Source: Sialis fuliginosa
Taxonomy: Eukaryota; Arthropoda; Insecta; Megaloptera; Sialidae
DNA: 64,000 bases
Assembly: GCA_961205875.1 (NCBI GenBank)
Contig: OY540820.1
Coordinates: 2,170,001 to 2,234,000, forward strand
Direction: 5' to 3'
Shown: one piece after another, positions 1 through 51,904 of the stretch
How positions within the stretch are numbered: the stretch's first letter is position 1
Layout of the letters: every line of letters begins with the position of its first letter
Notes under the pieces: generated by a model
Told to the model about the DNA's origin: nothing
The model's input: only the letters and a program-made list of their open reading frames with translations
Database searches by the model: none
Position numbers and translations under genes: made by a program

Positions 1-1577
1 TAAATTTAAACATAAAATTTAAACATAAATTTAAACATAAGTTTGAACTTAAATTTAAACATAAATTAAAACATAAATTAAAACATAAACTTAGACATAA
101 ATTTATACATAAATTTAAACATAAATTTAAACATAAAATTTAACATAAATTTAAACATAAATTTAAACATAAAATTAAACATAAGTTTAAACATAAATTT
201 AAACATAAATTTAAACATAAATTTAAACATTAATTTAAACATAAATTTAAACATAAATTTAAACATAAATTTAAACATAAAATTAAACATAAGTTTAAAC
301 ATAAATTTAAACATAAATTTAAACATAAATTAAAACATAAACTTAAACATAAATTTAAACGTAAATTTAAACATAAATTTAAACATAAATTTAAACATAA
401 ATTAAACATAAATTTAAACATAAATTTAAACATAAATTTAAACATAAATTTAAACATAAATTTAAACATAAATTTAAACATAAATTTAAACATAAAATTA
501 AACATAAATTTAAACATAAATTTAAACATAAATTTAAACATAAATTAAAACATAAACTTAAACATAAATTTAAACTTAATTTTAAACATTAATTTAAACA
601 TAAATTTAAACATAAATTAAAACATAAATTTAAACTTAAATTTAAACATAAATTTAAACATAAATTTAAACATAAATTATAACATAAATTAAACATAAAT
701 TTAAACTTAAATTTAAACATAAATTTAAACATAAATTTAAACATAAAATTAAACATAAGTTTAAACATAAATTTAAACATAAATTTAAACATAAATTAAA
801 ACATAAATTTAAACTTAAATTTAAACATAAATTTAAACTTAAATTTAAACATAAATTTAAACATAAATTTAAACATAAATTTAAACATAAATTTAAACAT
901 AAATTAAAACATAAATTAAAACATAAATTTAAACATAAATTTAAACATAAATTTAAACATAAAATTAAAACATAAACTTAGACATAAATTTATACATAAA
1001 TTTAAACATAAATTTAAACATAAAATTTAACATAAATTTAAACATAAATTTAAACATAAAATTAAACATAAGTTTAAACATAAATTTAAACATAAATTTA
1101 AACATAAATTTAAACATAAATTAAAACATAAATTAAAACATAAATTTAAACATAAATTTAAACATAAATTAAAACATAAACTAAAACATAATTTTAAACA
1201 AAAATTTAAACATAAAATTAAACATAAATTTAACATAAATTAAAACATAAACTTAAACATAAATTTAAACATAAATTTAAATATAAATTTAAACATGAAT
1301 TAAAACATAAATTAAAACATAAATTTAAACTTAAATTTAAACATAAATTTAAACATAAATTTAAATATAAATTATAACATAAATTTAAACATAAATTAAA
1401 ACATAAAATTTAAACATAAATTTAAACATAAATTTGAACTTAAATTTAAACATAAATTTAAACATAAATTTAAACATAAAATTAAACATAAATTTGAACA
1501 TAAATTTAAACATAAATTTAAACATAAATTAGCACATAAATTTAAACTTAAATTTAAACATAAATTTAAACATAAAT
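1..1577 (+). repeat. 12-mer satellite block 0 (cut by window edge)
   Basis: Degenerate tandem array of CATAAATTTAAA with frequent variant units and occasional 11- and 13-bp units. TTTAAA and AAATTT inside the unit are each self-complementary. It aligns, with a few small indels, to about 6394-7970 in front of core 3, so it is an older copy of the same higher-order segment. A recurring variant run, CTTAGACAT followed by ATTTATACAT, appears near 90 and 975. It ends in the CTTAAATTT flank that precedes most cores, here of the TTAGCACAT type (about 1530). No gene seen. Confidence 0.95.
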
Positions 1578-2302
1578 GTCAAATCTAGTCGTTTAGACAC
1601 TAAATTTCCGATAAGTGTCCAAAAACTGATGGAATTGATTTAATATAATTTGATCCGATTGTTATGGTACGAATCGAGACGTTTATTGTCAAAATACACC
1701 GATTTAATACAAATCGAGTCGATTTGCAGATGTTATATGTTTATTTACGTGTATGATTTAGTTTATGTTTAATCTATTGCTTATGCATGTTTATATTTAT
1801 GTTTATGTTTATGTTTATATTTATGTTTATGTTTATGTTTATGTTTATGTTTATGTTTGTGTTTGTGTTTATGTTTATGTTTATGTTTTTGTTTATGTTT
1901 ATGTTTATGTTTATGTTTATGTTTATGTTTATGTTTATGTTTATGTTTATGTTTATGTTTATGTTTATGTTTATGTTTATGTTTATGTTTATGTTTATGT
2001 TTATGTTTATGTTTATGTTTATGTTTATGTTTATGTTTATGTTTATGTTTATGTTTATGTTTATGTTTATGTTTATGTTTATGTTTATGTTTATGTTTAT
2101 GTTTATGTTTATGTTTATGTTTATGTTTATGTTTATGTTTATGTTTATGTTTATGTTTATGTTTATGTTTATGTTTATGTTTATGTTTATGTTTATGTTT
2201 ATGTTTATGTTTGTGTTTGTGTTTGTGTTTATGTTTATGTTTATGTTTCTGTTTATGTTTATGTTTTAATTTAAGTTAAAGTTTATGATTAAACATAAAC
2301 TT
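1578..2302 (+). repeat. Composite unit 1: core + TTTATG array + junction
   Basis: Reference unit. Core 1578-1789 (212 bp, type I: G40, C79). It holds a 15-bp palindrome AAATCGAGTCGATTT at core positions 134-148, a GACACT/AGTGTC inverted repeat at 19-24/37-42, and ten CpGs. Its last 30 bases are degenerate TTTATG units that merge into the array. Array 1790-2266: 79 hexamers, first edge with TTTATA and two TTTGTG units, last edge with three TTTGTG, then three TTTATG, one TTTCTG and two TTTATG; one TTTTTG interruption at 1886. Junction 2267-2302 is the TTTAAGTTAAAG variant and ends in the AAGTTTATG/CATAAACTT inverted repeat. No protein or RNA family is recognised in the core. Confidence 0.95.
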
Positions 2303-2841
2303 AAACATAAATTTAAACATAAATTTAAACATAAATTTAAACATAAATTTAAACATAAATTAAAACATATATTAAAACATAAACTTAAACATAAATTAAA
2401 AGATAAATTTAAACATAAATTTAAACATAAATTTAAACATAAATTTAAACATAAATTTAAACATAAATTTAAACATAAATTTAAACATAAATTTAAACAT
2501 AAATTAAAACATAAATTTAAACTTAAATTTAAACATAAATTTAAACATAAATTTAAACATAAATTTAAACATAAAATTTAAACATAAATTTAAACATAAA
2601 TTTGAACTTAAATTTAAACATAAATTAAAACATTAATTAAAACATAAACTTAAACATAAATTTAAACATAAATTTAAACATAAATTTAAACATAAATTTA
2701 AACATAAAATTTAACATAAATTTAAACATAAATTTAAACATAAAATTAAACATAAATTTGAACATAAATTTAAACATAAATTTAAACATAAATTAGCACA
2801 TAAATTTAAACTTAAATTTAAACATAAATTTAAACATAAAT
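2303..2841 (+). repeat. 12-mer satellite block 1
   Basis: 539 bp of CATAAATTTAAA variants between units 1 and 2, ending in the TTAGCACAT-type flank. Its last 150 bp closely matches the end of block 0. No gene. Confidence 0.94.
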
Positions 2842-3626
2842 GTCAAATCTAGTCGTTTAGACACTAAATTTCCGATAAGTGTCCAAAAACTGATGGAATT
2901 GATTTAATATAATTTGATCCGATTGTTATGGTACGAATCGAGACGTTTATTGTCAAAATACACCGATTTAATACAAATCGAGTCGATTTGCAGATGTTAT
3001 ATGTTTATTTACGTGTATGATTTAGTTTATGTTTAATCTATTGCTTATGCATGTTTATATTTATGTTTATGTTTATGTTTATATTTATGTTTATGTTTAT
3101 GTTTATGTTTATGTTTATGTTTGTGTTTGTGTTTGTGTTTATGTTTATGTTTATGTTTATGTTTATGTTTATGTTTATGTTTATGTTTATGTTTATGTTT
3201 ATGTTTATGTTTATGTTTATGTTTATGTTTATGTTTATGTTTATGTTTATGTTTATGTTTATGTTTATGTTTATGTTTATGTTTATGTTTATGTTTATGT
3301 TTATGTTTATGTTTATGTTTATGTTTATGTTTATGTTTATGTTTATGTTTATGTTTATGTTTATGTTTATGTTTATGTTTATGTTTATGTTTATGTTTAT
3401 GTTTATGTTTATGTTTATGTTTATGTTTATGTTTATGTTTATGTTTATGTTTATGTTTATGTTTATGTTTATGTTTATGTTTATGTTTATGTTTATGTTT
3501 ATGTTTATGTTTATGTTTATGTTTATGTTTGTGTTTGTGTTTGTGTTTGTGTTTATGTTTATGTTTATGTTTATGTTTATGTTTATGTTTTAATTAAAGT
3601 TCAAGTTTATGATTAAACATAAACTT
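2842..3626 (+). repeat. Composite unit 2: core + TTTATG array + junction
   Basis: Core 2842-3053, type I, no length change. Array 3054-3590, 89 hexamers, three TTTGTG at the first edge and four at the last. Unlike most arrays it lacks the TTTCTG unit: six TTTATG follow the last TTTGTG block. Junction 3591-3626 is the TTAATTAAAGTTC type, with the inverted repeat at 3603-3626. Confidence 0.95.
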
Positions 3627-5108: not shown

Positions 5109-5269
5109 TTATGTTTATGTTTATGTTTATGTTTATGTTTATGTTTATGTTTATGTTTATGTTTATGTTTATGTTTATGTTTATGTTTATGTTTATGTTT
5201 ATGTTTATGTTTATGTTTATGTTTATGTTTATGTTTATGTTTATGTTTATGTTTATGTTTATGTTTATG
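5109..5269 (+). repeat. Orphan TTTATG array without a core
   Basis: A partial TTATG followed by 26 perfect TTTATG units, with no 212-bp core before it, no TTTGTG or TTTCTG edge units, and no TTAATTAAAG junction after it. It sits exactly between the two copies of the 1418-bp duplication. Its right edge forms the perfect 18-bp palindrome TTTATGTTTAAACATAAA at 5264-5281. Confidence 0.95.
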
Positions 5270-7970: not shown

Positions 7971-8791
7971 GTCAAATCTAGTCGTTTAGACACTAAATTT
8001 CCGATAAGTGTCCAAAAACTGATGGAATTGATTTAATATAATTTGATCCGATTGTTATGGTACGAATCGAGACGTTTATTGTCAAAATACACCGATTTAA
8101 TACAAATCGAGTCGATTTGCAGATGTTATATGTTTATTTACGTGTATGATTTAGTTTATGTTTAATCTATTGCTTATGCATGTTTATATTTATGTTTATG
8201 TTTATGTTTATATTTATGTTTATGTTTATGTTTATGTTTATGTTTATGTTTGTGTTTGTGTTTATGTTTATGTTTATGTTTATGTTTATGTTTATGTTTA
8301 TGTTTATGTTTATGTTTATGTTTATGTTTATGTTTATGTTTATGTTTATGTTTATGTTTATGTTTATGTTTATGTTTATGTTTATGTTTATGTTTATGTT
8401 TATGTTTATGTTTATGTTTATGTTTATGTTTATGTTTATGTTTATGTTTATGTTTATGTTTATGTTTATGTTTATGTTTATGTTTATGTTTATGTTTATG
8501 TTTATGTTTATGTTTATGTTTATGTTTATGTTTATGTTTATGTTTATGTTTATGTTTATGTTTATGTTTATGTTTATGTTTATGTTTATGTTTATGTTTA
8601 TGTTTATGTTTATGTTTATGTTTATGTTTATGTTTATGTTTATGTTTATGTTTATGTTTATGTTTATGTTTATGTTTATGTTTATGTTTATGTTTGTGTT
8701 TGTGTTTGTGTTTGTGTTTATGTTTATGTTTATGTTTCTGTTTATGTTTATGTTTTAATTAAAGTTCAAGTTTATGATTAAACATAAACTT
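7971..8791 (+). repeat. Composite unit 3: core + TTTATG array + junction
   Basis: Core 7971-8182, type I. Array 8183-8755, 95 hexamers, TTTGTG edge blocks of two and four, TTTCTG present. Junction 8756-8791, TTAATTAAAGTTC type. Confidence 0.95.
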
Positions 8792-11479: not shown

Positions 11480-12306
11480 GTCAAATCTAGTCGTTTAGAC
11501 ACTAAATTTCCGATAAGTGTCCAAAAACTGATGGAATTGATTTAATATAATTTGATCCGATTGTTATGGTACGAATCGAGACGTTTATTGTCAAAATACA
11601 CCGATTTAATACAAATCGAGTCGATTTGCAGATGTTATATGTTTATTTACGTGTATGATTTAGTTTATGTTTAATCTATTGCTTATGCATGTTTATATTT
11701 ATGTTTATGTTTATGTTTATATTTATGTTTATGTTTATGTTTATGTTTATGTTTATGTTTGTGTTTGTGTTTATGTTTATGTTTATGTTTATGTTTATGT
11801 TTATGTTTATGTTTATGTTTATGTTTATGTTTATGTTTATGTTTATGTTTATGTTTATGTTTATGTTTATGTTTATGTTTATGTTTATGTTTATGTTTAT
11901 GTTTATGTTTATGTTTATGTTTATGTTTATGTTTATGTTTATGTTTATGTTTATGTTTATGTTTATGTTTATGTTTATGTTTATGTTTATGTTTATGTTT
12001 ATGTTTATGTTTATGTTTATGTTTATGTTTATGTTTATGTTTATGTTTATGTTTATGTTTATGTTTATGTTTATGTTTATGTTTATGTTTATGTTTATGT
12101 TTATGTTTATGTTTATGTTTATGTTTATGTTTATGTTTATGTTTATGTTTATGTTTATGTTTATGTTTATGTTTATGTTTATGTTTATGTTTATGTTTAT
12201 GTTTGTGTTTGTGTTTGTGTTTGTGTTTGTGTTTATGTTTATGTTTATGTTTCTGTTTATGTTTATGTTTTAATTAAAGTTCAAGTTTATGATTAAACAT
12301 AAACTT
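11480..12306 (+). repeat. Composite unit 4: core + TTTATG array + junction
   Basis: Core 11480-11691, type I. Array 11692-12270, 96 hexamers, one more TTTGTG than unit 3 at the last edge (five) and otherwise the same structure. Junction 12271-12306. It is the tandem copy of unit 3 (offset 3509). Confidence 0.95.
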
Positions 12307-14846: not shown

Positions 14847-15625
14847 GTCAAATCTAGTCGTTTAGACACTAAATTTCCGATAAGTGTCCAAAAACTGATG
14901 GAATTGATTTAATATAATTTGATCCGATTGTTATGGTACGAATCGAGACGTTTATTGTCAAAATACACCGATTTAATACAAATCGAGTCGATTTGCAGAT
15001 GTTATATGTTTATTTACGTGTATGATTTAGTTTATGTTTAATCTATTGCTTATGCATGTTTATATTTATGTTTATGTTTATGTTTATATTTATGTTTATG
15101 TTTATGTTTATGTTTATGTTTATGTTTGTGTTTGTGTTTATGTTTATGTTTATGTTTATGTTTATGTTTATGTTTATGTTTATGTTTATGTTTATGTTTA
15201 TGTTTATGTTTATGTTTATGTTTATGTTTATGTTTATGTTTATGTTTATGTTTATGTTTATGTTTATGTTTATGTTTATGTTTATGTTTATGTTTATGTT
15301 TATGTTTATGTTTATGTTTATGTTTATGTTTATGTTTATGTTTATGTTTATGTTTATGTTTATGTTTATGTTTATGTTTATGTTTATGTTTATGTTTATG
15401 TTTATGTTTATGTTTATGTTTATGTTTATGTTTATGTTTATGTTTATGTTTATGTTTATGTTTATGTTTATGTTTATGTTTATGTTTATGTTTATGTTTA
15501 TGTTTATGTTTATGTTTATGTTTATGTTTGTGTTTGTGTTTGTGTTTGTGTTTATGTTTATGTTTATGTTTCTGTTTATGTTTATGTTTTAATCAAAGTT
15601 CAAGTTTATGATTAAACATAAACTT
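14847..15625 (+). repeat. Composite unit 5: core + TTTATG array + junction
   Basis: Core 14847-15058, type I, the last type I copy. Array 15059-15589, 88 hexamers, TTTGTG blocks of two and four, TTTCTG present. Junction 15590-15625 has a private change, TTAATCAAAG instead of TTAATTAAAG. Confidence 0.95.
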
Positions 15626-19282: not shown

Positions 19283-19764
19283 GTCAAATCTAGTCGTTTA
19301 GACACTAAATTTCCGATAAGTATCCAAAAACTGATGGAATTGATTTAATATAATTTGATCTGATTGTTATGGTACGAATCGAGACGTTTATTGTCAAAAT
19401 ACACCGATTTAATACAAATCGAGTCGATTTGCAGATGTTATATGTTTATTTACGTGTATGATTTAGTTTATGTTTAATCTATTGCTTATGCATGTTTATA
19501 TTTATGTTTATGTTTATGTTTATGTTTATGTTTATGTTTATGTTTATGTTTATGTTTATGTTTATGTTTATGTTTATGTTTATGTTTATGTTTATGTTTG
19601 TGTTTGTGTTTGTGTTTATGTTTATGTTTATGTTTATGTTTATGTTTATGTTTATGTTTATGTTTATGTTTATGTTTATGTTTATGTTTATGTTTATGTT
19701 TATGTTTATGTTTATGTTTATGTTTATGTTTATGTTTATGTTTATGTTTATGTTTATGTTTATA
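19283..19764 (+). repeat. Composite unit 6, truncated array
   Basis: Core 19283-19494, first type III copy (A40, T79). Array 19495-19764, 45 hexamers with three TTTGTG at the first edge, then it stops abruptly: TTTATA TTATATA joins straight into 12-mers at about 19771. The last-edge TTTGTG block, TTTCTG and the junction inverted repeat are all missing. This is the only core-linked array without the normal end. Confidence 0.95.
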
Positions 19765-21676: not shown

Positions 21677-22455
21677 GTCAAATCTAGTCGTTTAGACACT
21701 AAATTTCCGATAAGTATCCAAAAACTGATGGAATTGATTTAATATAATTTGATCTGATTGTTATGGTACGAATCGAGACGTTTATTGTCAAAATACACCG
21801 ATTTAATACAAATCGAGTCGATTTGCAGATGTTATATGTTTATTTACGTGTATGATTTAGTTTATGTTTAATCTATTGCTTATGCATGTTTATATTTATG
21901 TTTATGTTTATGTTTATGTTTATGTTTATGTTTATGTTTATGTTTATGTTTATGTTTATGTTTATGTTTATGTTTATGTTTATGTTTGTGTTTGTGTTTG
22001 TGTTTATGTTTATGTTTATGTTTATGTTTATGTTTATGTTTATGTTTATGTTTATGTTTATGTTTATGTTTATGTTTATGTTTATGTTTATGTTTATGTT
22101 TATGTTTATGTTTATGTTTATGTTTATGTTTATGTTTATGTTTATGTTTATGTTTATGTTTATGTTTATGTTTATGTTTATGTTTATGTTTATGTTTATG
22201 TTTATGTTTATGTTTATGTTTATGTTTATGTTTATGTTTATGTTTATGTTTATGTTTATGTTTATGTTTATGTTTATGTTTATGTTTATGTTTATGTTTA
22301 TGTTTATGTTTATGTTTATGTTTATGTTTATGTTTATGTTTATGTTTGTGTTTGTGTTTGTGTTTGTGTTTGTGTTTGTGTTTATGTTTATGTTTATGTT
22401 TCTGTTTATGTTTATGTTTTAATTTAAGTTAAAGTTTATGATTAAACATAAACTT
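21677..22455 (+). repeat. Composite unit 7: core + TTTATG array + junction
   Basis: Core 21677-21888, type III, same haplotype as core 6. Array 21889-22419, 88 hexamers, three TTTGTG at the first edge and six at the last, the longest such block here. Junction 22420-22455 is the TTTAAGTTAAAG type seen otherwise only in unit 1. Confidence 0.95.
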
Positions 22456-23054: not shown

Positions 23055-23839
23055 GTCAAATCTAGTCGTTTAGACACTAAATTTCCGATAAGTGTCCAAA
23101 AACTGATGGAATTGATTTAATATAATTTGATCTGATTGTTATGGTACGAATCGAGACGTTTATTGTCAAAATACACCGATTTAATACAAATCGAGTCGAT
23201 TTGCATATGTTATATGTTTATTTACGTGTATGATTTAGTTTATGTTTAATCTATTGCTTATGCATGTTTATATTTATGTTTATGTTTATGTTTATATTTA
23301 TGTTTATGTTTATGTTTATGTTTATGTTTATGTTTGTGTTTGTGTTTATGTTTATGTTTATGTTTATGTTTATGTTTATGTTTATGTTTATGTTTATGTT
23401 TATGTTTATGTTTATGTTTATGTTTATGTTTATGTTTATGTTTATGTTTATGTTTATGTTTATGTTTATGTTTATGTTTATGTTTATGTTTATGTTTATG
23501 TTTATGTTTATGTTTATGTTTATGTTTATGTTTATGTTTATGTTTATGTTTATGTTTATGTTTATGTTAATGTTAATGTTTATGTTTATGTTTATGTTTA
23601 TGTTTATGTTTATGTTTATGTTTATGTTTATGTTTATGTTTATGTTTATGTTTATGTTTATGTTTATGTTTATGTTTATGTTTATGTTTATGTTTATGTT
23701 TATGTTTATGTTTATGTTTATGTTTATGTTTATGTTTATGTTTGTGTTTGTGTTTGTGTTTGTGTTTATGTTTATGTTTATGTTTCTGTTTATGTTTATG
23801 TTTTAATTAAAGTTCAAGTTTATGATTAAACATAAACTT
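23055..23839 (+). repeat. Composite unit 8: core + TTTATG array + junction
   Basis: Core 23055-23266, type II (G40, T79), but it keeps C133, unlike the other type II cores, and has a private G152 to T change giving GCATATG. Array 23267-23803, 89 hexamers, TTTGTG blocks of two and four, with a private double interruption TTAATG TTAATG near 23566-23577. Junction 23804-23839. Confidence 0.95.
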
Positions 23840-24730: not shown

Positions 24731-25485
24731 GTCAAATCTAGTCGTTTAGACACTAAATTTCCGATAAGTATCCAAAAACTGATGGAATTGATTTAATATA
24801 ATTTGATCTGATTGTTATGGTACGAATCGAGACGTTTATTGTCAAAATACACCGATTTAATACAAATCGAGTCGATTTGCAGATGTTATATGTTTATTTA
24901 CGTGTATGATTTAGTTTATGTTTAATCTATTGCTTATGCATGTTTATATTTATGTTTATGTTTATGTTTATGTTTATGTTTATGTTTATGTTTATGTTTA
25001 TGTTTATGTTTATGTTTATGTTTATGTTTAAGTTTATGTTTATGTTTATGTTTGTGTTTGTGTTTGTGTTTGTGTTTATGTTTATGTTTATGTTTATGTT
25101 TATGTTTATGTTTATGTTTATGTTTATGTTTATGTTTATGTTTATGTTTATGTTTATGTTTATGTTTATGTTTATGTTTATGTTTATGTTTATGTTTATG
25201 TTTATGTTTATGTTTATGTTTATGTTTATGTTTATGTTTATGTTTATGTTTATGTTTATGTTTATGTTTATGTTTATGTTTATGTTTATGTTTATGTTTA
25301 TGTTTATGTTTATGTTTATGTTTATGTTTATGTTTATGTTTATGTTTATGTTTATGTTTATGTTTATGTTTATGTTTATGTTTATGTTTATGTTTATGTT
25401 TATGTTTATGTTTATGTTTATGTTTATGTTTATGTTTATGTTTATGTTTTAATTAAAGTTCAAGTTTATGATTAAACATAAACTT
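24731..25485 (+). repeat. Composite unit 9: core + array lacking last edge
   Basis: Core 24731-24942, type III. Array 24943-25449, 84 hexamers, four TTTGTG near the first edge, a TTTAAG interruption at 25027, then pure TTTATG to the junction: no TTTGTG or TTTCTG at the last edge. Junction 25450-25485 is normal. First member of the four-core block. Confidence 0.95.
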
Positions 25486-25663: not shown

Positions 25664-26010
25664 GTAAAATCTAGTCGTTTAGACACTAAATTTCCGATAA
25701 GTATCCAAAAACTGATGGAATTGATTTAATATAATTTGATCTGATTGTTATGGTACGAATCGAGACGTTTATTGTCAAAATACACCGATTTAATACAAAT
25801 CGAGTCGATTTGCAGATGTTATATGTTTATTTACGTGTATGATTTAGTTTATGTTTAAACTATTGCTTATGCATGTTTATATTTATGTTTATGTTTATGT
25901 TTATGTTTATGTTTGTGTTTGTGTTTGTGTTTGTGTTTATGTTTATGTTTATGTTTCTGTTTATGTTTATGTTTTAATTAAAGTTCAAGTTTATGATTAA
26001 ACATAAACTT
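25664..26010 (+). repeat. Composite unit 10: core + very short array
   Basis: Core 25664-25875, type III with C3 to A and T196 to A. Array 25876-25974 has only 16 hexamers: TTTATA, five TTTATG, four TTTGTG, three TTTATG, TTTCTG, two TTTATG. Both edges are kept but the homogeneous centre is absent. Junction 25975-26010 normal. Confidence 0.95.
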
Positions 26011-26608: not shown

Positions 26609-27369
26609 GTCAAATCTAGTCGTTTAGACACTAAATTTCCGATAAGTGTCCAAAAACTGATGGAATTGATTTAATATAATTTGATCTGATTGTTATGGTA
26701 CGAATCGAGACGTTTATTGTCAAAATACACCGATTTAATATAAATCGAGTCGATTTGCAGATGTTATATGTTAATTTACGTGTATGATTTAGTTTATGTT
26801 TAATCTATTGCTTATGCATGTTTATATTTATGTTTATGTTTATGTTTATATTTATGTTTATGTTTATGTTTATGTTTATGTTTATGTTTGTGTTTATGTT
26901 TATGTTTATGTTTATGTTTATGTTTATGTTTATGTTTATGTTTATGTTTATGTTTATGTTTATGTTTATGTTTATGTTTATGTTTATGTTTATGTTTATG
27001 TTTATGTTTATGTTTATGTTTATGTTTATGTTTATGTTTATGTTTATGTTTATGTTTATGTTTATGTTTATGTTTATGTTTATGTTTATGTTTATGTTTA
27101 TGTTTATGTTTATGTTTATGTTTATGTTTATGTTTATGTTTATGTTTATGTTTATGTTTATGTTTATGTTTATGTTTATGTTTATGTTTATGTTTATGTT
27201 TATGTTTATGTTTATGTTTATGTTTATGTTTATGTTTATGTTTATGTTTATGTTTATGTTTATGTTTATGTTTGTGTTTGTGTTTGTGTTTGTGTTTATG
27301 TTTATGTTTATGTTTCTGTTTATGTTTATGTTTTAATTAAAGTTCAAGTTTATGATTAAACATAAACTT
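26609..27369 (+). repeat. Composite unit 11: core + TTTATG array + junction
   Basis: Core 26609-26820, type II with C133 to T and T165 to A. Array 26821-27333, 85 hexamers, one TTTGTG at the first edge, four at the last, then three TTTATG before TTTCTG. Junction 27334-27369. Confidence 0.95.
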
Positions 27370-28623: not shown

Positions 28624-29420
28624 GTCAAATCTAGTCGTTTAGACACTAAATTTCCGATAAGTATCCAAAAACTGATGGAATTGATTTAATATAATTTGAT
28701 CTGATTGTTATGGTACGAATCGAGACGTTTATTGTCAAAATACACCGATTTGATACAAATCGAGTCGATTTGCAGATGTTATATGTTTATTTACGTGTAT
28801 GATTTAGTTTATGTTTAATCTATTGCTTATGCATGTTTATATTTATGTTTATGTTTATGTTTATGTTTATGTTTATGTTTATGTTTATGTTTATGTTTAT
28901 GTTTATGATTATGTTTATGTTTATATTTGTGTTTATGTTTATGTTTATGTTTATGTTTATGTTTATGTTTATGTTTATGTTTATGTTTATGTTTATGTTT
29001 ATGTTTATGTTTATGTTTATGTTTATGTTTATGTTTATGTTTATGTTTATGTTTATGTTTATGTTTATGTTTAAGTTTATGTTTATGTTTATGTTTATGT
29101 TTATGTTTATGTTTATGTTTATGTTTATGTTTATGTTTATGTTTATGTTTATGTTTATGTTTATGTTTATGTTTATGTTTATGTTTATGTTTATGTTTAT
29201 GTTTATGTTTATGTTTATGATTATGTTTATGTTTATGTTTATGTTTATGTTTATGTTTATGTTTATGTTTATGTTTATGTTTATGTTTATGTTTATGTTT
29301 ATGTTTATGTTTATGTTTATGTTTGTGTTTGTGTTTGTGTTTGTGTTTATGTTTATGTTTATGTTTCTGTTTATGTTTATGTTTTAATTTAAGTTCAAGT
29401 TTATGATTAAACATAAACTT
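28624..29420 (+). repeat. Composite unit 12: core + TTTATG array + junction
   Basis: Core 28624-28835, type III with A129 to G. Array 28836-29384, 91 hexamers, a single TTTGTG at the first edge directly after TTTATA, four at the last edge, interruptions ATTATG (two) and TTTAAG at 29070. Junction 29385-29420 is the TTTAAGTTC type, followed by the marker CATAATATTAAAC. Confidence 0.95.
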
Positions 29421-29670: not shown

Positions 29671-30443
29671 GTCAAATCTAGTCGTTTAGACACTAAATTT
29701 CCGATAAGTATCCAAAAACTGATGGAATTGATTTAATATAATTTGATCTGATTGTTATGGTACGAATCGAGACGTTTATTGTCAAAATACACCGATTTAA
29801 TACAAATCGAGTCGATTTGCAGATGTTATATGTTTATTTACGTGTATGATTTAGTTTATGTTTAATCTATTGCTTATGCATGTTTATATTTATGTTTATG
29901 TTTATGTTTATGTTTATGTTTATGTTTATGTTTATGTTTATGTTTATGTTTATGTTTATGTTTATGTTTAAGTTTATGTTTATGTTTATGTTTATGTTTG
30001 TGTTTGTGTTTGTGTTTATGTTTATGTTTATGTTTATGTTTATGTTTATGTTTATGTTTATGTTTATGTTTATGTTTATGTTTATGTTTATGTTTATGTT
30101 TATGTTTATGTTTATGTTTATGTTTATGTTTATGTTTATGTTTATGTTTATGTTTATGTTTATGTTTATGTTTATGTTTATGTTTATGTTTATGTTTATG
30201 TTTATGTTTATGTTTATGTTTATGTTTATGTTTATGTTTATGTTTATGTTTATGTTTATGTTTATGTTTATGTTTATGTTTATGTTTATGTTTATGTTTA
30301 TGTTTATGTTTATGTTTATGTTTATGTTTATGTTTATGTTTATGTTTATGTTTATGTTTATGTTTATGTTTATGTTTATGTTTATGTTTATGTTTATGTT
30401 TATGTTTTAATTAAAGTTCAAGTTTATGATTAAACATAAACTT
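29671..30443 (+). repeat. Composite unit 13 (copy of unit 9)
   Basis: Core 29671-29882, type III. Array 29883-30407, 87 hexamers, three TTTGTG near the first edge, TTTAAG at 29967 (same 84-bp offset as in unit 9), and no last-edge variants. Junction 30408-30443. Confidence 0.95.
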
Positions 30444-30621: not shown

Positions 30622-30968
30622 GTAAAATCTAGTCGTTTAGACACTAAATTTCCGATAAGTATCCAAAAACTGATGGAATTGATTTAATATAATTTGATCT
30701 GATTGTTATGGTACGAATCGAGACGTTTATTGTCAAAATACACCGATTTAATACAAATCGAGTCGATTTGCAGATGTTATATGTTTATTTACGTGTATGA
30801 TTTAGTTTATGTTTAAACTATTGCTTATGCATGTTTATATTTATGTTTATGTTTATGTTTATGTTTATGTTTGTGTTTGTGTTTGTGTTTGTGTTTATGT
30901 TTATGTTTATGTTTCTGTTTATGTTTATGTTTTAATTAAAGTTCAAGTTTATGATTAAACATAAACTT
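30622..30968 (+). repeat. Composite unit 14 (copy of unit 10, short array)
   Basis: Core 30622-30833 with the same private A3 and A196 changes as core 10. Array 30834-30932, 16 hexamers, same order as unit 10. Junction 30933-30968. Confidence 0.95.
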
Positions 30969-31566: not shown

Positions 31567-32327
31567 GTCAAATCTAGTCGTTTAGACACTAAATTTCCGA
31601 TAAGTGTCCAAAAACTGATGGAATTGATTTAATATAATTTGATCTGATTGTTATGGTACGAATCGAGACGTTTATTGTCAAAATACACCGATTTAATATA
31701 AATCGAGTCGATTTGCAGATGTTATATGTTAATTTACGTGTATGATTTAGTTTATGTTTAATCTATTGCTTATGCATGTTTATATTTATGTTTATGTTTA
31801 TGTTTATATTTATGTTTATGTTTATGTTTATGTTTATGTTTATGTTTGTGTTTATGTTTATGTTTATGTTTATGTTTATGTTTATGTTTATGTTTATGTT
31901 TATGTTTATGTTTATGTTTATGTTTATGTTTATGTTTATGTTTATGTTTATGTTTATGTTTATGTTTATGTTTATGTTTATGTTTATGTTTATGTTTATG
32001 TTTATGTTTATGTTTATGTTTATGTTTATGTTTATGTTTATGTTTATGTTTATGTTTATGTTTATGTTTATGTTTATGTTTATGTTTATGTTTATGTTTA
32101 TGTTTATGTTTATGTTTATGTTTATGTTTATGTTTATGTTTATGTTTATGTTTATGTTTATGTTTATGTTTATGTTTATGTTTATGTTTATGTTTATGTT
32201 TATGTTTATGTTTATGTTTGTGTTTGTGTTTGTGTTTGTGTTTATGTTTATGTTTATGTTTATGTTTATGTTTCTGTTTATGTTTATGTTTTAATTAAAG
32301 TTCAAGTTTATGATTAAACATAAACTT
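31567..32327 (+). repeat. Composite unit 15 (copy of unit 11)
   Basis: Core 31567-31778, type II with T133 and A165 as in core 11. Array 31779-32291, also 85 hexamers, but five rather than three TTTATG separate the last TTTGTG block from TTTCTG. Junction 32292-32327. Confidence 0.95.
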
Positions 32328-33581: not shown

Positions 33582-34390
33582 GTCAAATCTAGTCGTTTAG
33601 ACACTAAATTTCCGATAAGTATCCAAAAACTGATGGAATTGATTTAATATAATTTGATCTGATTGTTATGGTACGAATCGAGACGTTTATTGTCAAAATA
33701 CACCGATTTGATACAAATCGAGTCGATTTGCAGATGTTATATGTTTATTTACGTGTATGATTTAGTTTATGTTTAATCTATTGCTTATGCATGTTTATAT
33801 TTATGTTTATGTTTATGTTTATGTTTATGTTTATGTTTATGTTTATGTTTATGTTTATGTTTATGATTATGTTTATGTTTATATTTGTGTTTATGTTTAT
33901 GTTTATGTTTATGTTTATGTTTATGTTTATGTTTATGTTTATGTTTATGTTTATGTTTATGTTTATGTTTATGTTTATGTTTATGTTTATGTTTATGTTT
34001 ATGTTTATGTTTATGTTTATGTTTAAGTTTATGTTTATGTTTATGTTTATGTTTATGTTTATGTTTATGTTTATGTTTATGTTTATGTTTATGTTTATGT
34101 TTATGTTTATGTTTATGTTTATGTTTATGTTTATGTTTATGTTTATGTTTATGTTTATGTTTATGTTTATGTTTATGTTTATGTTTATGTTTATGTTTAT
34201 GTTTATGTTTATGTTTATGTTTATGTTTATGTTTATGTTTATGTTTATGTTTATGTTTATGTTTATGTTTATGTTTATGTTTATGTTTATGTTTGTGTTT
34301 GTGTTTGTGTTTGTGTTTATGTTTATGTTTATGTTTCTGTTTATGTTTATGTTTTAATTTAAGTTCAAGTTTATGATTAAACATAAACTT
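33582..34390 (+). repeat. Composite unit 16 (copy of unit 12)
   Basis: Core 33582-33793, type III with G129. Array 33794-34354, 93 hexamers, TTTAAG at 34022, one early ATTATG; the second ATTATG of unit 12 is absent. Junction 34355-34390, TTTAAGTTC type with CATAATATTAAAC after it. Confidence 0.95.
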
Positions 34391-35275: not shown

Positions 35276-35994
35276 GTCAAATCTAGTCGTTTAGACACTA
35301 AATTTCCGATAAGTATCCAAAAACTGATGGAATTGATTTAATATAATTTGATCTGATTGTTATGGTACGAATCGAGACGTTTATTGTCAAAATACACCGA
35401 TTTAATACAAATCGAGTCGATTTGCAGATGTTATATGTTTATTTACGTGTATGATTTAGTTTATGTTTAATCTATTGCTTATGCATGTTTATATTTATGT
35501 TTATGTTTATGTTTATGTTTATGTTTATGTTTATGTTTATGTTTATGTTTATGTTTAAGTTTATGTTTATGTTTATGTTTATGTTTGTGTTTGTGTTTGT
35601 GTTTATGTTTATGTTTATGTTTATGTTTATGTTTATGTTTATGTTTATGTTTATGTTTATGTTTATGTTTATGTTTATGTTTATGTTTATGTTTATGTTT
35701 ATGTTTATGTTTATGTTTATGTTTATGTTTATGTTTATGTTTATGTTTATGTTTATGTTTATGTTTATGTTTATGTTTATGTTTATGTTTATGTTTATGT
35801 TTATGTTTATGTTTATGTTTATGTTTATGTTTATGTTTATGTTTATGTTTATGTTTATGTTTATGTTTATGTTTATGTTTATGTTTATGTTTATGTTTAT
35901 GTTTATGTTTATGTTTATGTTTATGTTTATGTTTATGTTTATGTTTATGTTTATGTTTTAATTAAAGTTCAAGTTTATGATTAAACATAAACTT
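35276..35994 (+). repeat. Composite unit 17 (copy of unit 9)
   Basis: Core 35276-35487, type III. Array 35488-35958, 78 hexamers, TTTAAG at 35554, three TTTGTG, no last-edge variants. Junction 35959-35994. Confidence 0.95.
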
Positions 35995-36112: not shown

Positions 36113-36459
36113 GTCAAATCTAGTCGTTTAGACACTAAATTTCCGATAAGTATCCAAAAACTGATGGAATTGATTTAATATAATTTGATCTGATTGTTAT
36201 GGTACGAATCGAGACGTTTATTGTCAAAATACACCGATTTAATACAAATCGAGTCGATTTGCAGATGTTATATGTTTATTTACGTGTATGATTTAGTTTA
36301 TGTTTAAACTATTGCTTATGCATGTTTATATTTATGTTTATGTTTATGTTTATGTTTATGTTTGTGTTTGTGTTTGTGTTTGTGTTTATGTTTATGTTTA
36401 TGTTTCTGTTTATGTTTATGTTTTAATTAAAGTTCAAGTTTATGATTAAACATAAACTT
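36113..36459 (+). repeat. Composite unit 18 (copy of unit 10, short array)
   Basis: Core 36113-36324 has A196 like cores 10 and 14 but keeps C3. Array 36325-36423, 16 hexamers, same order as units 10 and 14. Junction 36424-36459. Confidence 0.95.
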
Positions 36460-37069: not shown

Positions 37070-37830
37070 GTCAAATCTAGTCGTTTAGACACTAAATTTC
37101 CGATAAGTGTCCAAAAACTGATGGAATTGATTTAATATAATTTGATCTGATTGTTATGGTACGAATCGAGACGTTTATTGTCAAAATACACCGATTTAAT
37201 ATAAATCGAGTCGATTTGCAGATGTTATATGTTTATTTACGTGTATGATTTAGTTTATGTTTAATCTATTGCTTATGCATGTTTATATTTATGTTTATGT
37301 TTATGTTTATATTTATGTTTATGTTTATGTTTATGTTTATGTTTATGTTTATGTTTGTGTTTGTGTTTATGTTTATGTTTATGTTTATGTTTATGTTTAT
37401 GTTTATGTTTATGTTTATGTTTATGTTTATGTTTATGTTTATGTTTATGTTTATGTTTATGTTTATGTTTATGTTTATGTTTATGTTTATGTTTATGTTT
37501 ATGTTTATGTTTATGTTTATGTTTATGTTTATGTTTATGTTTATGTTTATGTTTATGTTTATGTTTATGTTTATGTTTATGTTTATGTTTATGTTTATGT
37601 TTATGTTTATGTTTATGTTTATGTTTATGTTTATGTTTATGTTTATGTTTATGTTTATGTTTATGTTTATGTTTATGTTTATGTTTATGTTTATGTTTAT
37701 GTTTATGTTTATGTTTATGTTTATGTTTATGTTTGTGTTTGTGTTTGTGTTTGTGTTTATGTTTATGTTTATGTTTCTGTTTATGTTTATGTTTTAATTA
37801 AAGTTCAAGTTTATGATTAAACATAAACTT
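37070..37830 (+). repeat. Composite unit 19 (copy of unit 11)
   Basis: Core 37070-37281, type II with T133 but without the A165 change of cores 11 and 15. Array 37282-37794, 85 hexamers, two TTTGTG early and four late. Junction 37795-37830. Confidence 0.95.
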
Positions 37831-39132: not shown

Positions 39133-39881
39133 GTCAAATCTAGTCGTTTAGACACTAAATTTCCGATAAGTATCCAAAAACTGATGGAATTGATTTAATA
39201 TAATTTGATCTGATTGTTATGGTACGAATCGAGACGTTTATTGTCAAAATACACCGATTTGATACAAATCGAGTCGATTTGCAGATGTTATATGTTTATT
39301 TACGTGTATGATTTAGTTTATGTTTAATCTATTGCTTATGCATGTTTATATTTATGTTTATGTTTATGTTTATGTTTATGTTTATGTTTATGTTTATGTT
39401 TATGTTTATGTTTATGTTTATGTTTATATTTGTGTTTATGTTTATGTTTATGTTTATGTTTATGTTTATGTTTATGTTTATGTTTATGTTTATGTTTATG
39501 TTTATGTTTATGTTTATGTTTATGTTTATGTTTATGTTTATGTTTATGTTTAAGTTTATGTTTATGTTTATGTTTATGTTTATGTTTATGTTTATGTTTA
39601 TGTTTATGTTTATGTTTATGTTTATGTTTATGTTTATGTTTATGTTTATGTTTATGTTTATGTTTATGTTTATGTTTATGTTTATGTTTATGTTTATGTT
39701 TATGTTTATGTTTATGTTTATGTTTATGTTTATGTTTATGTTTATGTTTATGTTTATGTTTATGTTTATGTTTATGTTTATGTTTGTGTTTGTGTTTGTG
39801 TTTGTGTTTATGTTTATGTTTATGTTTCTGTTTATGTTTATGTTTTAATTTAAGTTCAAGTTTATGATTAAACATAAACTT
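39133..39881 (+). repeat. Composite unit 20 (copy of unit 12)
   Basis: Core 39133-39344, type III with G129. Array 39345-39845, 83 hexamers, TTTAAG at 39549, one TTTGTG early and four late. Junction 39846-39881, TTTAAGTTC type. Confidence 0.95.
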
Positions 39882-43089: not shown

Positions 43090-43628
43090 GTCAAATCTAG
43101 TCGTTTAGACACTAAATTTCCGATAAGTATCCAAAAACTGATGGAATTGATTTAATATAATTTGATCTGATTGTTATGGTACGAATCGAGACGTTTATTG
43201 TCAAAATACACCGATTTAATACAAATCGAGTCGATTTGCAGATGTTATATGTTTATTTACGTGTATGATTTAGTTTATGTTTAATCTATTGCTTATGCAT
43301 GTTTATATTTATGTTTATGTTTATGTTTATGTTTATGTTTATGTTTATGTTTATGTTTATGTTTATGTTTATGTTTATGTTTATGTTTATGTTTATGTTT
43401 ATGTTTATATTTGTGTTTATGTTTATGTTTATGTTTATGTTTATGTTTATGTTTATGTTTATGTTTATGTTTATGTTTATGTTTATGTTTATGTTTATGT
43501 TTATGTTTATGTTTATGTTTATGTTTATGTTTGTGTTTGTGTTTGTGTTTGTGTTTATGTTTATGTTTATGTTTCTGTTTATGTTTATGTTTTAATTAAA
43601 GTTCAAGTTTATGATTAAACATAAACTT
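43090..43628 (+). repeat. Composite unit 21: core + reduced array
   Basis: Core 43090-43301, type III. Array 43302-43592, 48 hexamers, about half the usual length, with normal edges (one TTTGTG early, four late, TTTCTG). Junction 43593-43628, TTAATTAAAGTTC type. Confidence 0.95.
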
Positions 43629-43950: not shown

Positions 43951-44675
43951 GTCAAATCTAGTCGTTTAGACACTAAATTTCCGATAAGTGTCCAAAAACT
44001 GATGGAATTGATTTAATATAATTTGATCTGATTGTTATGGTACGAATCGAGACGTTTATTGTCAAAATACACCGATTTAATATAAATCGAGTCGATTTGC
44101 AGATGTTATACGTTTATTTACGTGTATGATTTAGTTTATGTTTAATCTATTGCTTATGCATGTTTATATTTATGTTTATGTTTATGTTTATATTTATGTT
44201 TATGTTTATGTTTATGTTTATGTTTATGTTTGTGTTTGTGTTTATGTTTATGTTTATGTTTATGTTTATGTTTATGTTTATGTTTATGTTTATGTTTATG
44301 TTTATGTTTATGTTTATGTTTATGTTTATGTTTATGTTTATGTTTATGTTTATGTTTATGTTTATGTTTATGTTTATGTTTATGTTTATGTTTATGTTTA
44401 TGTTTATGTTTATGTTTATGTTTATGTTTATGTTTATGTTTATGTTTATGTTTATGTTTATGTTTATGTTTATGTTTATGTTTATGTTTATGTTTATGTT
44501 TATGTTTATGTTTATGTTTATGTTTATGTTTATGTTTATGTTTATGTTTATGTTTATGTTTATGTTTATGTTTATGTTTGTGTTTGTGTTTGTGTTTGTG
44601 TTTATGTTTATGTTTATGTTTCTGTTTATGTTTATGTTTTAATTAAAGTTCAAGTTTATGATTAAACATAAACTT
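43951..44675 (+). repeat. Composite unit 22: core + TTTATG array + junction
   Basis: Core 43951-44162, type II with T133 and T161 to C (an extra ACG, shared only with core 24). Array 44163-44639, 79 hexamers, TTTGTG blocks of two and four. Junction 44640-44675. Confidence 0.95.
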
Positions 44676-46682: not shown

Positions 46683-47551
46683 GTCAAATCTAGTCGTTTA
46701 GACACTAAATTTCCGATAAGTATCCAAAAACTGATGGAATTGATTTAATATAATTTGATCTGATTGTTATGGTACGAATCGAGACGTTTATTGTCAAAAT
46801 ACACCGATTTAATACAAATCGAGTCGATTTGCAGATGTTATATGTTTATTTACGTGTATGATTTAGTTTATGTTTAATCTATTGCTTATGCATGTTTATA
46901 TTTATGTTTATGTTTATGTTTATGTTTATGTTTATGTTTATGTTTATGTTTATGTTTATGTTTATGTTTATGTTTATGTTTATGTTTATGTTTATGTTTA
47001 TGTTTATGTTTATGTTTATGTTTGTGTTTGTGTTTATGTTTATGTTTATGTTTATGTTTATGTTTATGTTTATGTTTATGTTTATGTTTATGTTTATGTT
47101 TATGTTTATGTTTATGTTTATGTTTATGTTTATGTTTATGTTTATGTTTATGTTTATGTTTATGTTTATGTTTATGTTTATGTTTATGTTTATGTTTATG
47201 TTTATGTTTATGTTTATGTTTATGTTTATGTTTATGTTTATGTTTATGTTTATGTTTATGTTTATGTTTATGTTTATGTTTATGTTTATGTTTATGTTTA
47301 TGTTTATGTTTATGTTTATGTTTATGTTTATGTTATTGTTTATGTTTATGTTTATGTTTATGTTTATGTTTATGTTTATGTTTATGTTTATGTTTATGTT
47401 TATGTTTATGTTTATGTTTATGTTTATGTTTATGTTTATGTTTATGTTTATGTTTGTGTTTGTGTTTGTGTTTGTGTTTATGTTTATGTTTATGTTTCTG
47501 TTTATGTTTATGTTTTAATTAAAGTTCAAGTTTATGATTAAACATAAACTT
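46683..47551 (+). repeat. Composite unit 23: core + long TTTATG array
   Basis: Core 46683-46894, type III. Array 46895-47515, 103 hexamers, two TTTGTG after about 21 hexamers, interruption TTATTG at 47333, four TTTGTG late. Junction 47516-47551. Confidence 0.95.
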
Positions 47552-47873: not shown

Positions 47874-48706
47874 GTCAAATCTAGTCGTTTAGACACTAAA
47901 TTTCCGATAAGTGTCCAAAAACTGATGGAATTGATTTAATATAATTTGATCTGATTGTTATGGTACGAATCGAGACGTTTATTGTCAAAATACACCGATT
48001 TAATATAAATCGAGTCGATTTGCAGATGTTATACGTTTATTTACGTGTATGATTTAGTTTATGTTTAATCTATTGCTTATGCATGTTTATATTTATGTTT
48101 ATGTTTATGTTTATATTTATGTTTATGTTTATGTTTATGTTTATGTTTATGTTTGTGTTTGTGTTTATGTTTATGTTTATGTTTATGTTTATGTTTATGT
48201 TTATGTTTATGATTATGTTTATGTTTATGTTTATGTTTATGTTTATGTTTATGTTTATGTTTATGTTTATGTTTATGTTTATGTTTATGTTTATGTTTAT
48301 GTTTATGTTTATGTTTATGTTTATGTTTATGTTTATGTTTATGTTTATGTTTATGTTTATGTTTATGTTTATGTTTATGTTTATGTTTATGTTTATGTTT
48401 ATGTTTATGTTTATGTTTATGTTTATGTTTATGTTTATGTTTATGTTTATGTTTATGTTTATGTTTATGTTTATGTTTATGTTTATGTTTATGTTTATGT
48501 TTATGTTTATGTTTATGTTTATGTTTATGTTTATGTTTATGTTTATGTTTATGTTTATGTTTATGTTTATGTTTATGTTTATGTTTATGTTTATGTTTAT
48601 GTTTATGTTTGTGTTTGTGTTTGTGTTTGTGTTTATGTTTATGTTTATGTTTCTGTTTATGTTTATGTTTTAATTAAAGTTCAAGTTTATGATTAAACAT
48701 AAACTT
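47874..48706 (+). repeat. Composite unit 24 (copy of unit 22)
   Basis: Core 47874-48085, type II with T133 and C161. Array 48086-48670, 97 hexamers, with a private ATTATG at 48212. Junction 48671-48706. Confidence 0.95.
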
Positions 48707-51011: not shown

Positions 51012-51904
51012 GTCAAATCTAGTCGTTTAGACACTAAATTTCCGATAAGTATCCAAAAACTGATGGAATTGATTTAATATAATTTGATCTGATTGTTATG
51101 GTACGAATCGAGACGTTTATTGTCAAAATACACCGATTTAATACAAATCGAGTCGATTTGCAGATGTTATATGTTTATTTACGTGTATGATTTAGTTTAT
51201 GTTTAATCTATTGCTTATGCATGTTTATATTTATGTTTATGTTTATGTTTATGTTTATGTTTATGTTTATGTTTATGTTTATGTTTATGTTTATGTTTAT
51301 GTTTATGTTTATGTTTATGTTTATGTTTATGTTTATGTTTATGTTTATATTTGTGTTTATGTTTATGTTTATGTTTATGTTTATGTTTATGTTTATGTTT
51401 ATGTTTATGTTTATGTTTATGTTTATGTTTATGTTTATGTTTATGTTTATGTTTATGTTTATGTTTATGTTTATGTTTATGTTTATGTTTATGTTTATGT
51501 TTATGTTTATGTTTATGTTTATGTTTATGTTTATGTTTATGTTTATGTTTATGTTTATGTTTATGTTTATGTTTATGTTTATGTTTATGTTTATGTTTAT
51601 GTTTATGTTTATGTTTATGTTTATGTTTATGTTTATGTTTATGTTTATGTTTATGTTTATGTTTATGTTATTGTTTATGTTTATGTTTATGTTTATGTTT
51701 ATGTTTATGTTTATGTTTATGTTTATGTTTATGTTTATGTTTATGTTTATGTTTATGTTTATGTTTATGTTTATGTTTATGTTTATGTTTATGTTTATGT
51801 TTATGTTTGTGTTTGTGTTTGTGTTTGTGTTTATGTTTATGTTTATGTTTCTGTTTATGTTTATGTTTTAATTTAAGTTCAAGTTTATGATTAAACATAA
51901 ACTT
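51012..51904 (+). repeat. Composite unit 25: core + longest TTTATG array
   Basis: Core 51012-51223, type III. Array 51224-51868, 107 hexamers, the longest here; it shares the TTATTG interruption (51668) with unit 23 but has a single TTTGTG after TTTATA at the first edge. Junction 51869-51904, TTTAAGTTC type with CATAATATTAAAC after it. Confidence 0.95.

What the first reader, a model, noticed from the sequence alone, without database searches (positions are those of the whole stretch)
1578..2302. Core flanked by inverted arms of the same simple repeat
TTTATG is the reverse complement of CATAAA, and the 12-mer CATAAATTTAAA matches two CATAAA hexamers at 10 of 12 positions. The left arm (12-mers) and right arm (hexamers) of every core are therefore the same family in opposite orientation, about 83 % complementary over hundreds of bases. 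Fold-back elements such as Drosophila FB have inverted termini built of short tandem repeats; this satellite looks like a fold-back unit that became a tandem array. The link to FB is an analogy of architecture, with no transposase or target-site duplication seen.
Basis: partly seen in the sequence, partly recalled or inferred. Interest (0 to 1): 0.82.

Follow-up and report, generated by a model that had tools for sequence, protein, structure and literature searches.

The report
Palindromic alderfly chromosome satellite, half-eroded here
This stretch of an alderfly chromosome is built from mirror-image repeat units with a conserved core at each centre; the same design is found on at least seven of its chromosomes, and the copy in this window has lost one of the two matching arms.

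Summary
The window is Sialis fuliginosa (alderfly) chromosome 12, 2.170-2.234 Mb, inside a satellite region of at least 0.43 Mb. In detail: 29 cassettes, all on the + strand, each 12-mer array > core (~209 bp) > (TTTATG)n > 12-mer array. Measured arm complementarity averages 78.5% (controls 65-67%), not 83%. On other chromosomes the same core lies between true inverted hexamer arms, (CATAAA)n-core-(TTTATG)n (99% complementary where compared on chr11). The window's units are an eroded form, lacking the left hexamer arm and about 68 bp of core. In sequence held from seven chromosomes, 90 of 92 cores sit exactly where repeat polarity flips C>G; 0 of 94 reverse flips has one. A core predicted at that spot on chr8 was found, about 71% identical overall but 36/37 over one palindromic box. 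On chr3 core orientation is uncoupled from its flanks, as if arms recombine and flip the core. So "fold-back unit become satellite" is largely right in architecture. The FB-transposon link is unsupported: listed core copies lie in one region per chromosome, and no element end or target-site duplication was seen (transposase not searched). Closest known kind: Tribolium (peri)centromeric macro-dyad satellites. Centromeric function is inferred, not shown.

The parts
1..1577 (+). 12-mer array (CATAAATTTAAA and variants), 'C-type' polarity; left flank of the first cassette
1578..1786 (+). core of cassette 1 (209 bp; left ~68 bp of the full core absent)
1690..1726 (+). 37-bp conserved segment CAAAATACACCGATTTAATACAAATCGAGTCGATTTG; 36 of 37 shared with the diverged chr8 core
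   Evidence: column-shuffle p 0.0025
1711..1725 (+). palindromic 15-mer AAATCGAGTCGATTT, in 29 of 29 window cores and 90 of 92 distinct cores examined
1787..2287 (+). right arm, (TTTATG)n, 'G-type' polarity, with TTTGTG/TTTCTG variants
2274..2302 (+). G>C polarity junction back into the 12-mer array (contains TTTATGATTAAACATAAAC)
2288..2841 (+). 12-mer array between cassettes 1 and 2
2842..3611 (+). cassette 2: core 2842-3050, hexamer 3051-3611
5109..5269 (+). hexamer arm without core; junction ACATTATTATG keeps only the left tip of the full core (CATTATT)
7971..8776 (+). cassette 3 (core 7971-8179)
11480..12291 (+). cassette 4 (core 11480-11688)
14847..15610 (+). cassette 5 (core 14847-15055)
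19283..19763 (+). cassette 6 (core 19283-19491)
21677..22440 (+). cassette 7 (core 21677-21885)
23055..23824 (+). cassette 8 (core 23055-23263)
24731..25470 (+). cassette 9 (core 24731-24939)
25669..25995 (+). cassette 10 (core 25669-25872, short 123-bp hexamer arm)
26609..27354 (+). cassette 11 (core 26609-26817)
28624..29405 (+). cassette 12 (core 28624-28832)
29671..30428 (+). cassette 13 (core 29671-29879)
30627..30953 (+). cassette 14 (core 30627-30830, short hexamer arm)
31567..32312 (+). cassette 15 (core 31567-31775)
33582..34375 (+). cassette 16 (core 33582-33790)
35276..35979 (+). cassette 17 (core 35276-35484)
36113..36444 (+). cassette 18 (core 36113-36321, short hexamer arm)
37070..37815 (+). 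cassette 19 (core 37070-37278)
39133..39866 (+). cassette 20 (core 39133-39341)
43090..43613 (+). cassette 21 (core 43090-43298)
43951..44660 (+). cassette 22 (core 43951-44159)
46683..47536 (+). cassette 23 (core 46683-46891)
47874..48691 (+). cassette 24 (core 47874-48082)
51012..51889 (+). cassette 25 (core 51012-51220)
52938..53605 (+). cassette 26 (core 52938-53146)
56358..57127 (+). cassette 27 (core 56358-56566)
58970..59727 (+). cassette 28 (core 58970-59178)
61158..61927 (+). cassette 29 (core 61158-61366)

Best explanation
It is the chromosome-12 subfamily of a candidate (peri)centromeric satellite whose unit is a dyad. A conserved core of about 0.2-0.3 kb lies between inverted arms of a simple hexamer, (CATAAA)n on the left and (TTTATG)n on the right, grading outwards into a 12-mer derivative (hexamer pair CATAAA+TTTAAA). 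SHOWN in the sequence held: the core marks the C>G polarity flip on seven chromosomes; cores of different chromosomes are homologous but form chromosome-specific subfamilies; on chr12 the left hexamer arm and about 68 bp of core are missing in the units examined; core orientation is uncoupled from its flanks on chr3. INFERRED: each array spreads by unequal exchange of core-plus-arm units and homogenises within its chromosome. The inverted arms can pair, which allows hairpin or cruciform formation and lets recombination between arms flip the core. The palindromic box inside the core (TACAAATCGAGTCGATTTG) is kept because a protein, probably dimeric, binds it. The arrays serve (peri)centromeric chromatin. 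On chr12, loss of the perfect left arm leaves only weak pairing with the degenerate 12-mer.
For: Census over the window and 29 loci on seven chromosomes, overlaps merged: 90 of 92 cores at a C>G flip, 2 C>G flips without a core, 0 of 94 G>C flips with one (an earlier pass without L006-L008 gave 87 of 89 and 0 of 91). h-H arms 99.1% complementary in the 16 of 29 chr11 units with arms long enough to compare, 63-237 nt taken 40 nt out from the core. Prediction test: on chr8, located only through its polarity junction, the 1,360 bp fetched between two junctions held exactly one core at the C>G flip, 73% over 256 bp, E 1e-36. Chr8 retains part of the left region that chr12 lacks, so chr12's state is derived. 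One region per chromosome: chr1 32.12-32.71, chr3 34.67-34.99, chr5 32.43-32.85, chr8 2.06-2.60, chr11 1.09-1.50, chr12 1.823 to at least 2.254, chr13 1.92-2.24 Mb; six of the seven lie within about 3 Mb of a chromosome end. Chr3 core/junction orientation with the junction on the right: +/+ 8, -/+ 14, +/- 3, -/- 7. Both core orientations also on chr1 (4 + and 8 - of 12 held), chr5 and chr13. Box conservation 36 of 37.
Against: No centromere assay (CENP-A, cytology) is available and Hi-C was not seen; the other seven chromosomes were not shown to carry it, and continuity of each region was not shown. Chr11 has good, though short, inverted arms, yet 29 of 29 held cores and all listed ones face one way, so flipping is not general. 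Left and right arms of a unit do not mirror each other's hexamer variants, so arms are not copied from each other. Amplified copies are not independent. The box test rests on one diverged core and a gapped alignment; with a 21-bp window it gives only p 0.059. Array-scale order and orientation may contain assembly error.
Confidence: 0.6

Rival explanations
1. A fold-back (FB/Tetris-like) TIR transposon with hexamer-repeat arms inserted in heterochromatin and was then amplified as a satellite; the core is its internal part.
For: Inverted arms made of short tandem repeats, core in both orientations on chr1, 3, 5 and 13, presence on seven chromosomes. A foldback-to-satellite case is published for Drosophila virilis (PMC4079207).
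Against: No listed core copy outside one region per chromosome (all but one search are capped lists). No defined outer end, because arms merge into the same repeat as the surroundings, so TSDs cannot be tested. Window cassettes share their left-flank 12-mer variant in 27 of 29 cases, so they were amplified together, not inserted separately.
Confidence: 0.2
2. The core is a replication origin and the hexamer polarity is set by fork direction: one strand expands only when it is, say, the lagging template, so polarity flips at every core and flips back where forks meet.
For: Polarity flips C>G at 90 of 92 cores and never G>C at a core. Arms of one unit carry different variants, as if each expanded independently.
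Against: An ancestral palindrome predicts the same flip pattern. On chr11 and chr12 the right arm is short and polarity returns within 0.1-0.7 kb, implausibly close for a fork-meeting point. No origin data.
Confidence: 0.07
3. Chance resemblance: two unrelated AT-rich simple repeats happen to lie on either side of the core, and there is no fold-back unit.
For: 2.4% of permuted 12-mers match as well, and a 12-mer array alone already folds well.
Against: Hexamer-to-hexamer inverted arms around homologous cores on chr1, 3, 5, 8 and 11, and mixed 12-mers intermediate between the two repeats.
Confidence: 0.03
4. The inverted arms are an assembly artefact of a hard-to-assemble array.
For: Long simple repeats are error-prone. 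A chr12-type core pattern gives 185 forward and 3 reverse matches genome-wide, so the rare reverse ones could be errors.
Against: Core spacing in the window is 0.8-5.1 kb, within typical HiFi read length (recalled). The assembly note reports 65x HiFi and QV 63.7 (PMC11549539). The core-at-flip rule holds on seven chromosomes with different subfamilies.
Confidence: 0.03

Closest known systems
Macro-dyad (peri)centromeric satellites of Tribolium (T. madens TmSat1/TmSat2; PMC13081366, abstract and passages read)
   Same: Satellite arrays in putative (peri)centromeric regions that reverse orientation at conserved inversion points; minor-satellite 'cassettes' embedded in a major satellite; hairpin or cruciform potential proposed.
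   Different: There the dyads are inverted subarrays of longer monomers (~110-bp basic unit, 704-bp TmSat2 monomer). Here the arms are a hexamer and its 12-mer derivative, and one non-repetitive core homologous across seven chromosomes occupies nearly every C>G flip examined. The authors state that macro-dyad satellites had been documented only in Tribolium.
Tetris foldback transposon and TIR-220 satellite, Drosophila virilis (PMC4079207, abstract and section 17 read)
   Same: Inverted arms containing tandem repeats; link between a fold-back structure and a satellite.
   Different: Tetris has TIRs and 8-10-bp target-site duplications, and its arm repeat became the satellite. Here no ends or duplications were found and arms plus core are amplified together.
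Drosophila FB elements (recalled, no call)
   Same: Inverted termini built of short tandem repeats around a middle segment.
   Different: Dispersed mobile elements with target-site duplications; none seen here.
Short AT-rich pericentromeric satellites of insects, e.g. (TTAAAA)n of Chnootriba argus (PMC6780895, search listing only)
   Same: AT-rich hexamer satellite in pericentromeric blocks.
   Different: The title and abstract opening mention no core and no inverted arms; the rest of that paper was not read.

Membership tests
Macro-dyad satellite (Tribolium type) | satellite arrays reversing orientation at conserved inversion points | tested here: met
   90 of 92 cores at C>G flips on seven chromosomes; recurring G>C junction on chr3 and chr5 and on chr8
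Macro-dyad satellite (Tribolium type) | arms long and near-identical, able to fold back | tested here: met
   Met on chr11 (0.991, 16 of 29 units) and by folding one unit each of chr5 and chr11; only weakly met in the window, 0.785
Macro-dyad satellite (Tribolium type) | location in (peri)centromeres of all chromosomes | tested here: inconclusive
   One region each on 7 of 14 chromosomes, 6 of the 7 near an end; the other seven not reached; no centromere mark
FB / foldback TIR transposon | inverted termini with internal short tandem repeats | tested here: met
   (CATAAA)n-core-(TTTATG)n
FB / foldback TIR transposon | constant element ends and target-site duplications | tested here: inconclusive
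   Arms grade into the same repeat on both sides, so neither end nor TSD can be defined in the copies held
FB / foldback TIR transposon | dispersed copies outside one array | tested here: inconclusive
   None among listed hits, but only the best 40 of 1,100-1,700 candidates or the first 100 places are listed, not capped, also found none
FB / foldback TIR transposon | transposase in the element or in an autonomous relative | not tested
   The window's ORFs of 150 aa or more lie in or run through the repeat arrays by position; no homology search made
Centromeric satellite | association with CENP-A chromatin | not testable with these tools
   no chromatin data

The most novel reading that the evidence does not exclude
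Alderfly centromeres are organised around a conserved cis-element. A palindromic box in a single core nucleates a protein complex, and the core sits at the exact centre of a kilobase palindrome of otherwise freely changing hexamers, so that structure and box, not the bulk satellite, define the locus. The core acts as an invertible switch flipped by recombination between its arms.
Probability: 0.15. Interest if true: 0.88.

Novelty: new variant of a known kind. Interest (0 to 1): 0.62.

Why it matters
Dyad symmetry at centromeres is proposed to help specify them, but by its authors' account the array-scale cases were known only from one beetle genus. An independent insect order showing the same principle, with a single homologous core marking nearly every dyad centre examined on seven chromosomes while the arm repeats change, separates 'structure' from 'sequence' and gives a concrete target (the core and its palindromic box) for binding and centromere tests. 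Chr12, where the perfect arm is lost, is a natural comparison for whether arms matter.

Tried and rejected
Rfam scan of the window: 0 families. ORFs of at least 150 aa: 63, by position in or running through the repeat arrays. A text search for the 12-mer found one unrelated paper. Mirror-copying between arms: rejected, variant hexamers differ between left and right arms in the units tabulated. 'Arms needed for core flipping': chr1, 3, 5 and 13 show both core orientations; chr11 (29 of 29 held) and chr12 (42 of 42 held) show one. Chr11 and chr12 are also the two where polarity returns to C-type soon after the right hexamer arm. This fits, but two against four chromosomes is too few, and only one chr8 core was read. 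Independent insertion of window cassettes: rejected, shared left-flank variant in 27 of 29. Searches for print on this satellite: 'Sialis' + 'satellite DNA' gave 2 papers, on bird barcodes and DNA fingerprinting; 'Megaloptera' + 'centromere' + 'satellite' gave 1, on ribosomal genes; 'TTTATG' + 'satellite' + 'inverted' gave 1, on wheat. All are listings of open-licence papers only.

Full report
Identity of the window. The window is G000:C12:2170001-2234000 of a 392,097,322-bp, 20-contig genome. C1 is 47,092,443 bp and C20 is 15,590 bp. C20 encodes mitochondrial proteins that look insect-like (translated, recognised by eye), and C12 starts with (CCTAA)n telomere-type repeat. The Sialis fuliginosa genome note (PMC11549539; part 1 of 3 of the text read) reports span 392.1 Mb (392,127,767 bp), longest scaffold 47,092,443 bp, mitochondrial genome 15.59 kb and chromosome 12 of 19.26 Mb. 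These match, so the window is taken to be chromosome 12 of this alderfly (Megaloptera).

What is in the window. A Viterbi segmentation divides the 64 kb into 12-mer array (43,474 bp), hexamer array (14,473 bp in 30 blocks) and 29 cores (6,051 bp) (totals). Each core (27 of 209 bp, 2 called 204 bp; 12 haplotypes) is preceded by the 12-mer and followed by (TTTATG)n; all 29 are on the + strand. Hexamer blocks are 123-669 bp and cores are 0.8-5.1 kb apart. One hexamer block (5109-5269) lacks a core but keeps the left tip of the full core, CATTATT. Cassettes share a left-flank 12-mer variant in 27 of 29 cases, and a cassette group is duplicated at a 4,958-bp offset (95.8% identical ungapped), so the array grew by duplicating groups of cassettes.

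Is the mirror relation real? The 10-of-12 match is correct; 2.4% of composition-preserving permutations reach it. In the real sequence the left 12-mer arm and the reverse complement of the right hexamer arm are 78.5% identical with gaps (29 cassettes), against 66.7% for 12-mer versus its own reverse complement and 65.4% for dinucleotide shuffles; 79.3% for the 25 cassettes with arms of 310 bp or more. A same-strand control gave 70.4% but with a range of 0.505-1.000 caused by short overlaps, so it is not informative. A cassette folds as one long hairpin (-134.6 kcal/mol, z -20), but a 12-mer-only stretch of the same length reaches -114 (z -13). Taken alone, the window shows a real but weak fold-back.

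The other chromosomes decide it. On chr11 the same core, with about 68 extra bp at its left end, lies between (CATAAA)n and (TTTATG)n inside the same 12-mer array. Where arms are long enough to compare (16 of 29 units) they are 99.1% complementary, and a 699-nt unit folds at -231 kcal/mol (z -31). The same plan is present on chr3, chr1, and chr5 and chr13. In the two chr13 loci the arm on one side of the core is inverted 12-mer rather than pure hexamer. The chr5 unit folds at -360 kcal/mol for 950 nt (z -43). Chr3 arms contain mixed repeats (CATAAACTTAAA, CATAAATTAAAA, TTTAAG runs), which supports the 12-mer being a diverged hexamer pair.

The rule. Over the window plus 29 loci from seven chromosomes, with overlaps merged, 90 of 92 cores sit where polarity changes from C-type (CATAAA or 12-mer) to G-type (TTTATG or inverted 12-mer). 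By chromosome: chr12 42 of 42, chr11 28 of 29, chr1 12 of 12, chr3 4 of 5, chr13 2 of 2, chr5 1 of 1, chr8 1 of 1. Two cores have C-type on both sides (chr11 L023; chr3 L028, truncated). Two C>G flips have no core (window 5108; L011:9698). None of 94 G>C flips has a core. Only cores with both flanks inside a locus and arms of at least 36 bp count; loci left out duplicate ones used or carry no satellite. These copies are amplified within arrays and are not independent; the seven chromosomes are the better sample.

A prediction that held. A chr13-derived query hit chr8 only at arm-like sequence (18 candidates, all scored), and the 1.5 kb fetched there showed a G>C flip and no core. The junction recurs at 40 scored sites on chr8 at 2.14-2.60 Mb. 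The rule predicts one core between two neighbouring junctions. The 1,360 bp fetched contained 12-mer, hexamer, a 270-bp unique segment, then inverted hexamer; the segment is homologous to the core (73% over 256 bp, E 1e-36). A second chr8 fetch of 2,001 bp stayed inside one C-type arm and contained no flip and no core. Over the aligned core, chr8 is 70-72% identical to the others, but one 37-bp stretch matches 36 of 37 (column shuffle p 0.0025; a 21-bp window gives p 0.059). It contains TACAAATCGAGTCGATTTG, a near-perfect palindrome. Its 15-bp centre is exact in 90 of 92 distinct cores; the two exceptions are the damaged chr3 copies in L028. Chr8 keeps part of the left core region that chr12 lacks, so the window's short core is derived.

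Core flipping. The G>C junction on chr3 and chr5 is a defined, non-palindromic sequence (...TTCAAATTTAGGTTTA...). On chr3, junctions listed from 34.745 to 34.917 Mb are all +, while cores in that stretch are + up to 34.774 Mb and - from 34.778 Mb. Of 60 chr3 cores and 52 junctions taken from the listings, the nearest junction within 2.5 kb lies to the right for 32 cores (core/junction +/+ 8, -/+ 14, +/- 3, -/- 7) and to the left for 8 (+/+ 1, -/+ 3, +/- 2, -/- 2); 20 cores had none listed. The core list is incomplete, being taken from capped listings. Inversion of whole units would keep one relation, so core and junction invert independently. Recombination between inverted arms is the simplest cause. 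Both orientations also occur on chr1 (4 + and 8 - held), chr5 and chr13. Against generality: chr11 (29 of 29) and chr12 (42 of 42) cores held face one way, and a chr12-type pattern has 185 forward and 3 reverse matches genome-wide.

Where the arrays are. One region per chromosome: chr1 32.12-32.71 of 47.09 Mb, chr3 34.67-34.99 of 36.78, chr5 32.43-32.85 of 35.44, chr8 2.06-2.60 of 23.90, chr11 1.09-1.50 of 20.25, chr12 1.823 to at least 2.254 of 19.26 (absent from 2.300-2.310), chr13 1.92-2.24 of 17.91. The outermost limits on chr5, 8 and 11 rest on arm-like hits, and continuity within each region was not checked. This is what acrocentric centromeres would look like, with chr1 more central; it is an inference, as no centromere assay exists here. 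Seven of fourteen chromosomes were reached; most searches list only the best 40 or first 100 places, so absence elsewhere is not shown.

What it is and what it is called. By architecture it is a macro-dyad satellite. The Tribolium madens paper (abstract and passages read) describes (peri)centromeric arrays reversing at conserved inversion points and says such arrays had been documented only in Tribolium. The present case is in another insect order, with simple-hexamer arms and one conserved core at the flip. It works like a fold-back unit, but a defining feature of FB-type transposons (ends with target-site duplications) could not be tested, because the arms merge into the same repeat, and no dispersed copy was seen in the listings. 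Tetris (abstract and one section read) is the published foldback-to-satellite precedent. Enrichment of dyads and other non-B DNA at centromeres is discussed in PMC9070824 (abstract read); there dyads were enriched only on the Y centromere of D. melanogaster.

Noticed in passing
L011:3972-6899 (chr12 ~1.824-1.827 Mb): A ~2.9-kb element with inverted arms of ~1.2 kb (90.5% identical) sits inside the 12-mer array at the left edge of the region, flanked by inverted-orientation 12-mers. Related short pieces occur in L014.
   Followed up: partly
L016:2784-3013 and L025:7718-7825: Subtelomeric TTAGG/CCTAA arrays on chr12 and chr1 are regularly interrupted by a ~23-bp insert (about TTTCCGGAGTCCCCGGAGTCAGTGA).
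   Followed up: no
L027 (G000:C19, 25,566 bp): Contig C19 looks bacterial (its first 1.2 kb resembles histidine-kinase and response-regulator genes by eye, no search run): possible contaminant in the assembly.
   Followed up: no
window 24940-29384 and 29898-34342: Near-identical duplication of a group of cassettes at 4,958-bp offset (95.8% ungapped over the 4,950 bp compared): higher-order repeat structure.
   Followed up: partly
L011:8236-8580 (chr12), L030:399-927 (chr1), L039 (chr13): Some arms have switched to variant hexamers (TTTGTG, TTTACG), each as a long nearly pure run: local hexamer replacement.
   Followed up: no
L041/L039 (chr13) beyond the left end of the core: Chr13 cores have ~55 bp of extra unique sequence beyond the left end of the core of other chromosomes; near-full-length hits are on chr13 only.
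   Followed up: partly
C1 32368503-32387075 (L044-L047): On chr1, neighbouring cores in opposite orientation come in pairs about 0.9-1.3 kb apart (- then +) in four of the loci held.
   Followed up: no
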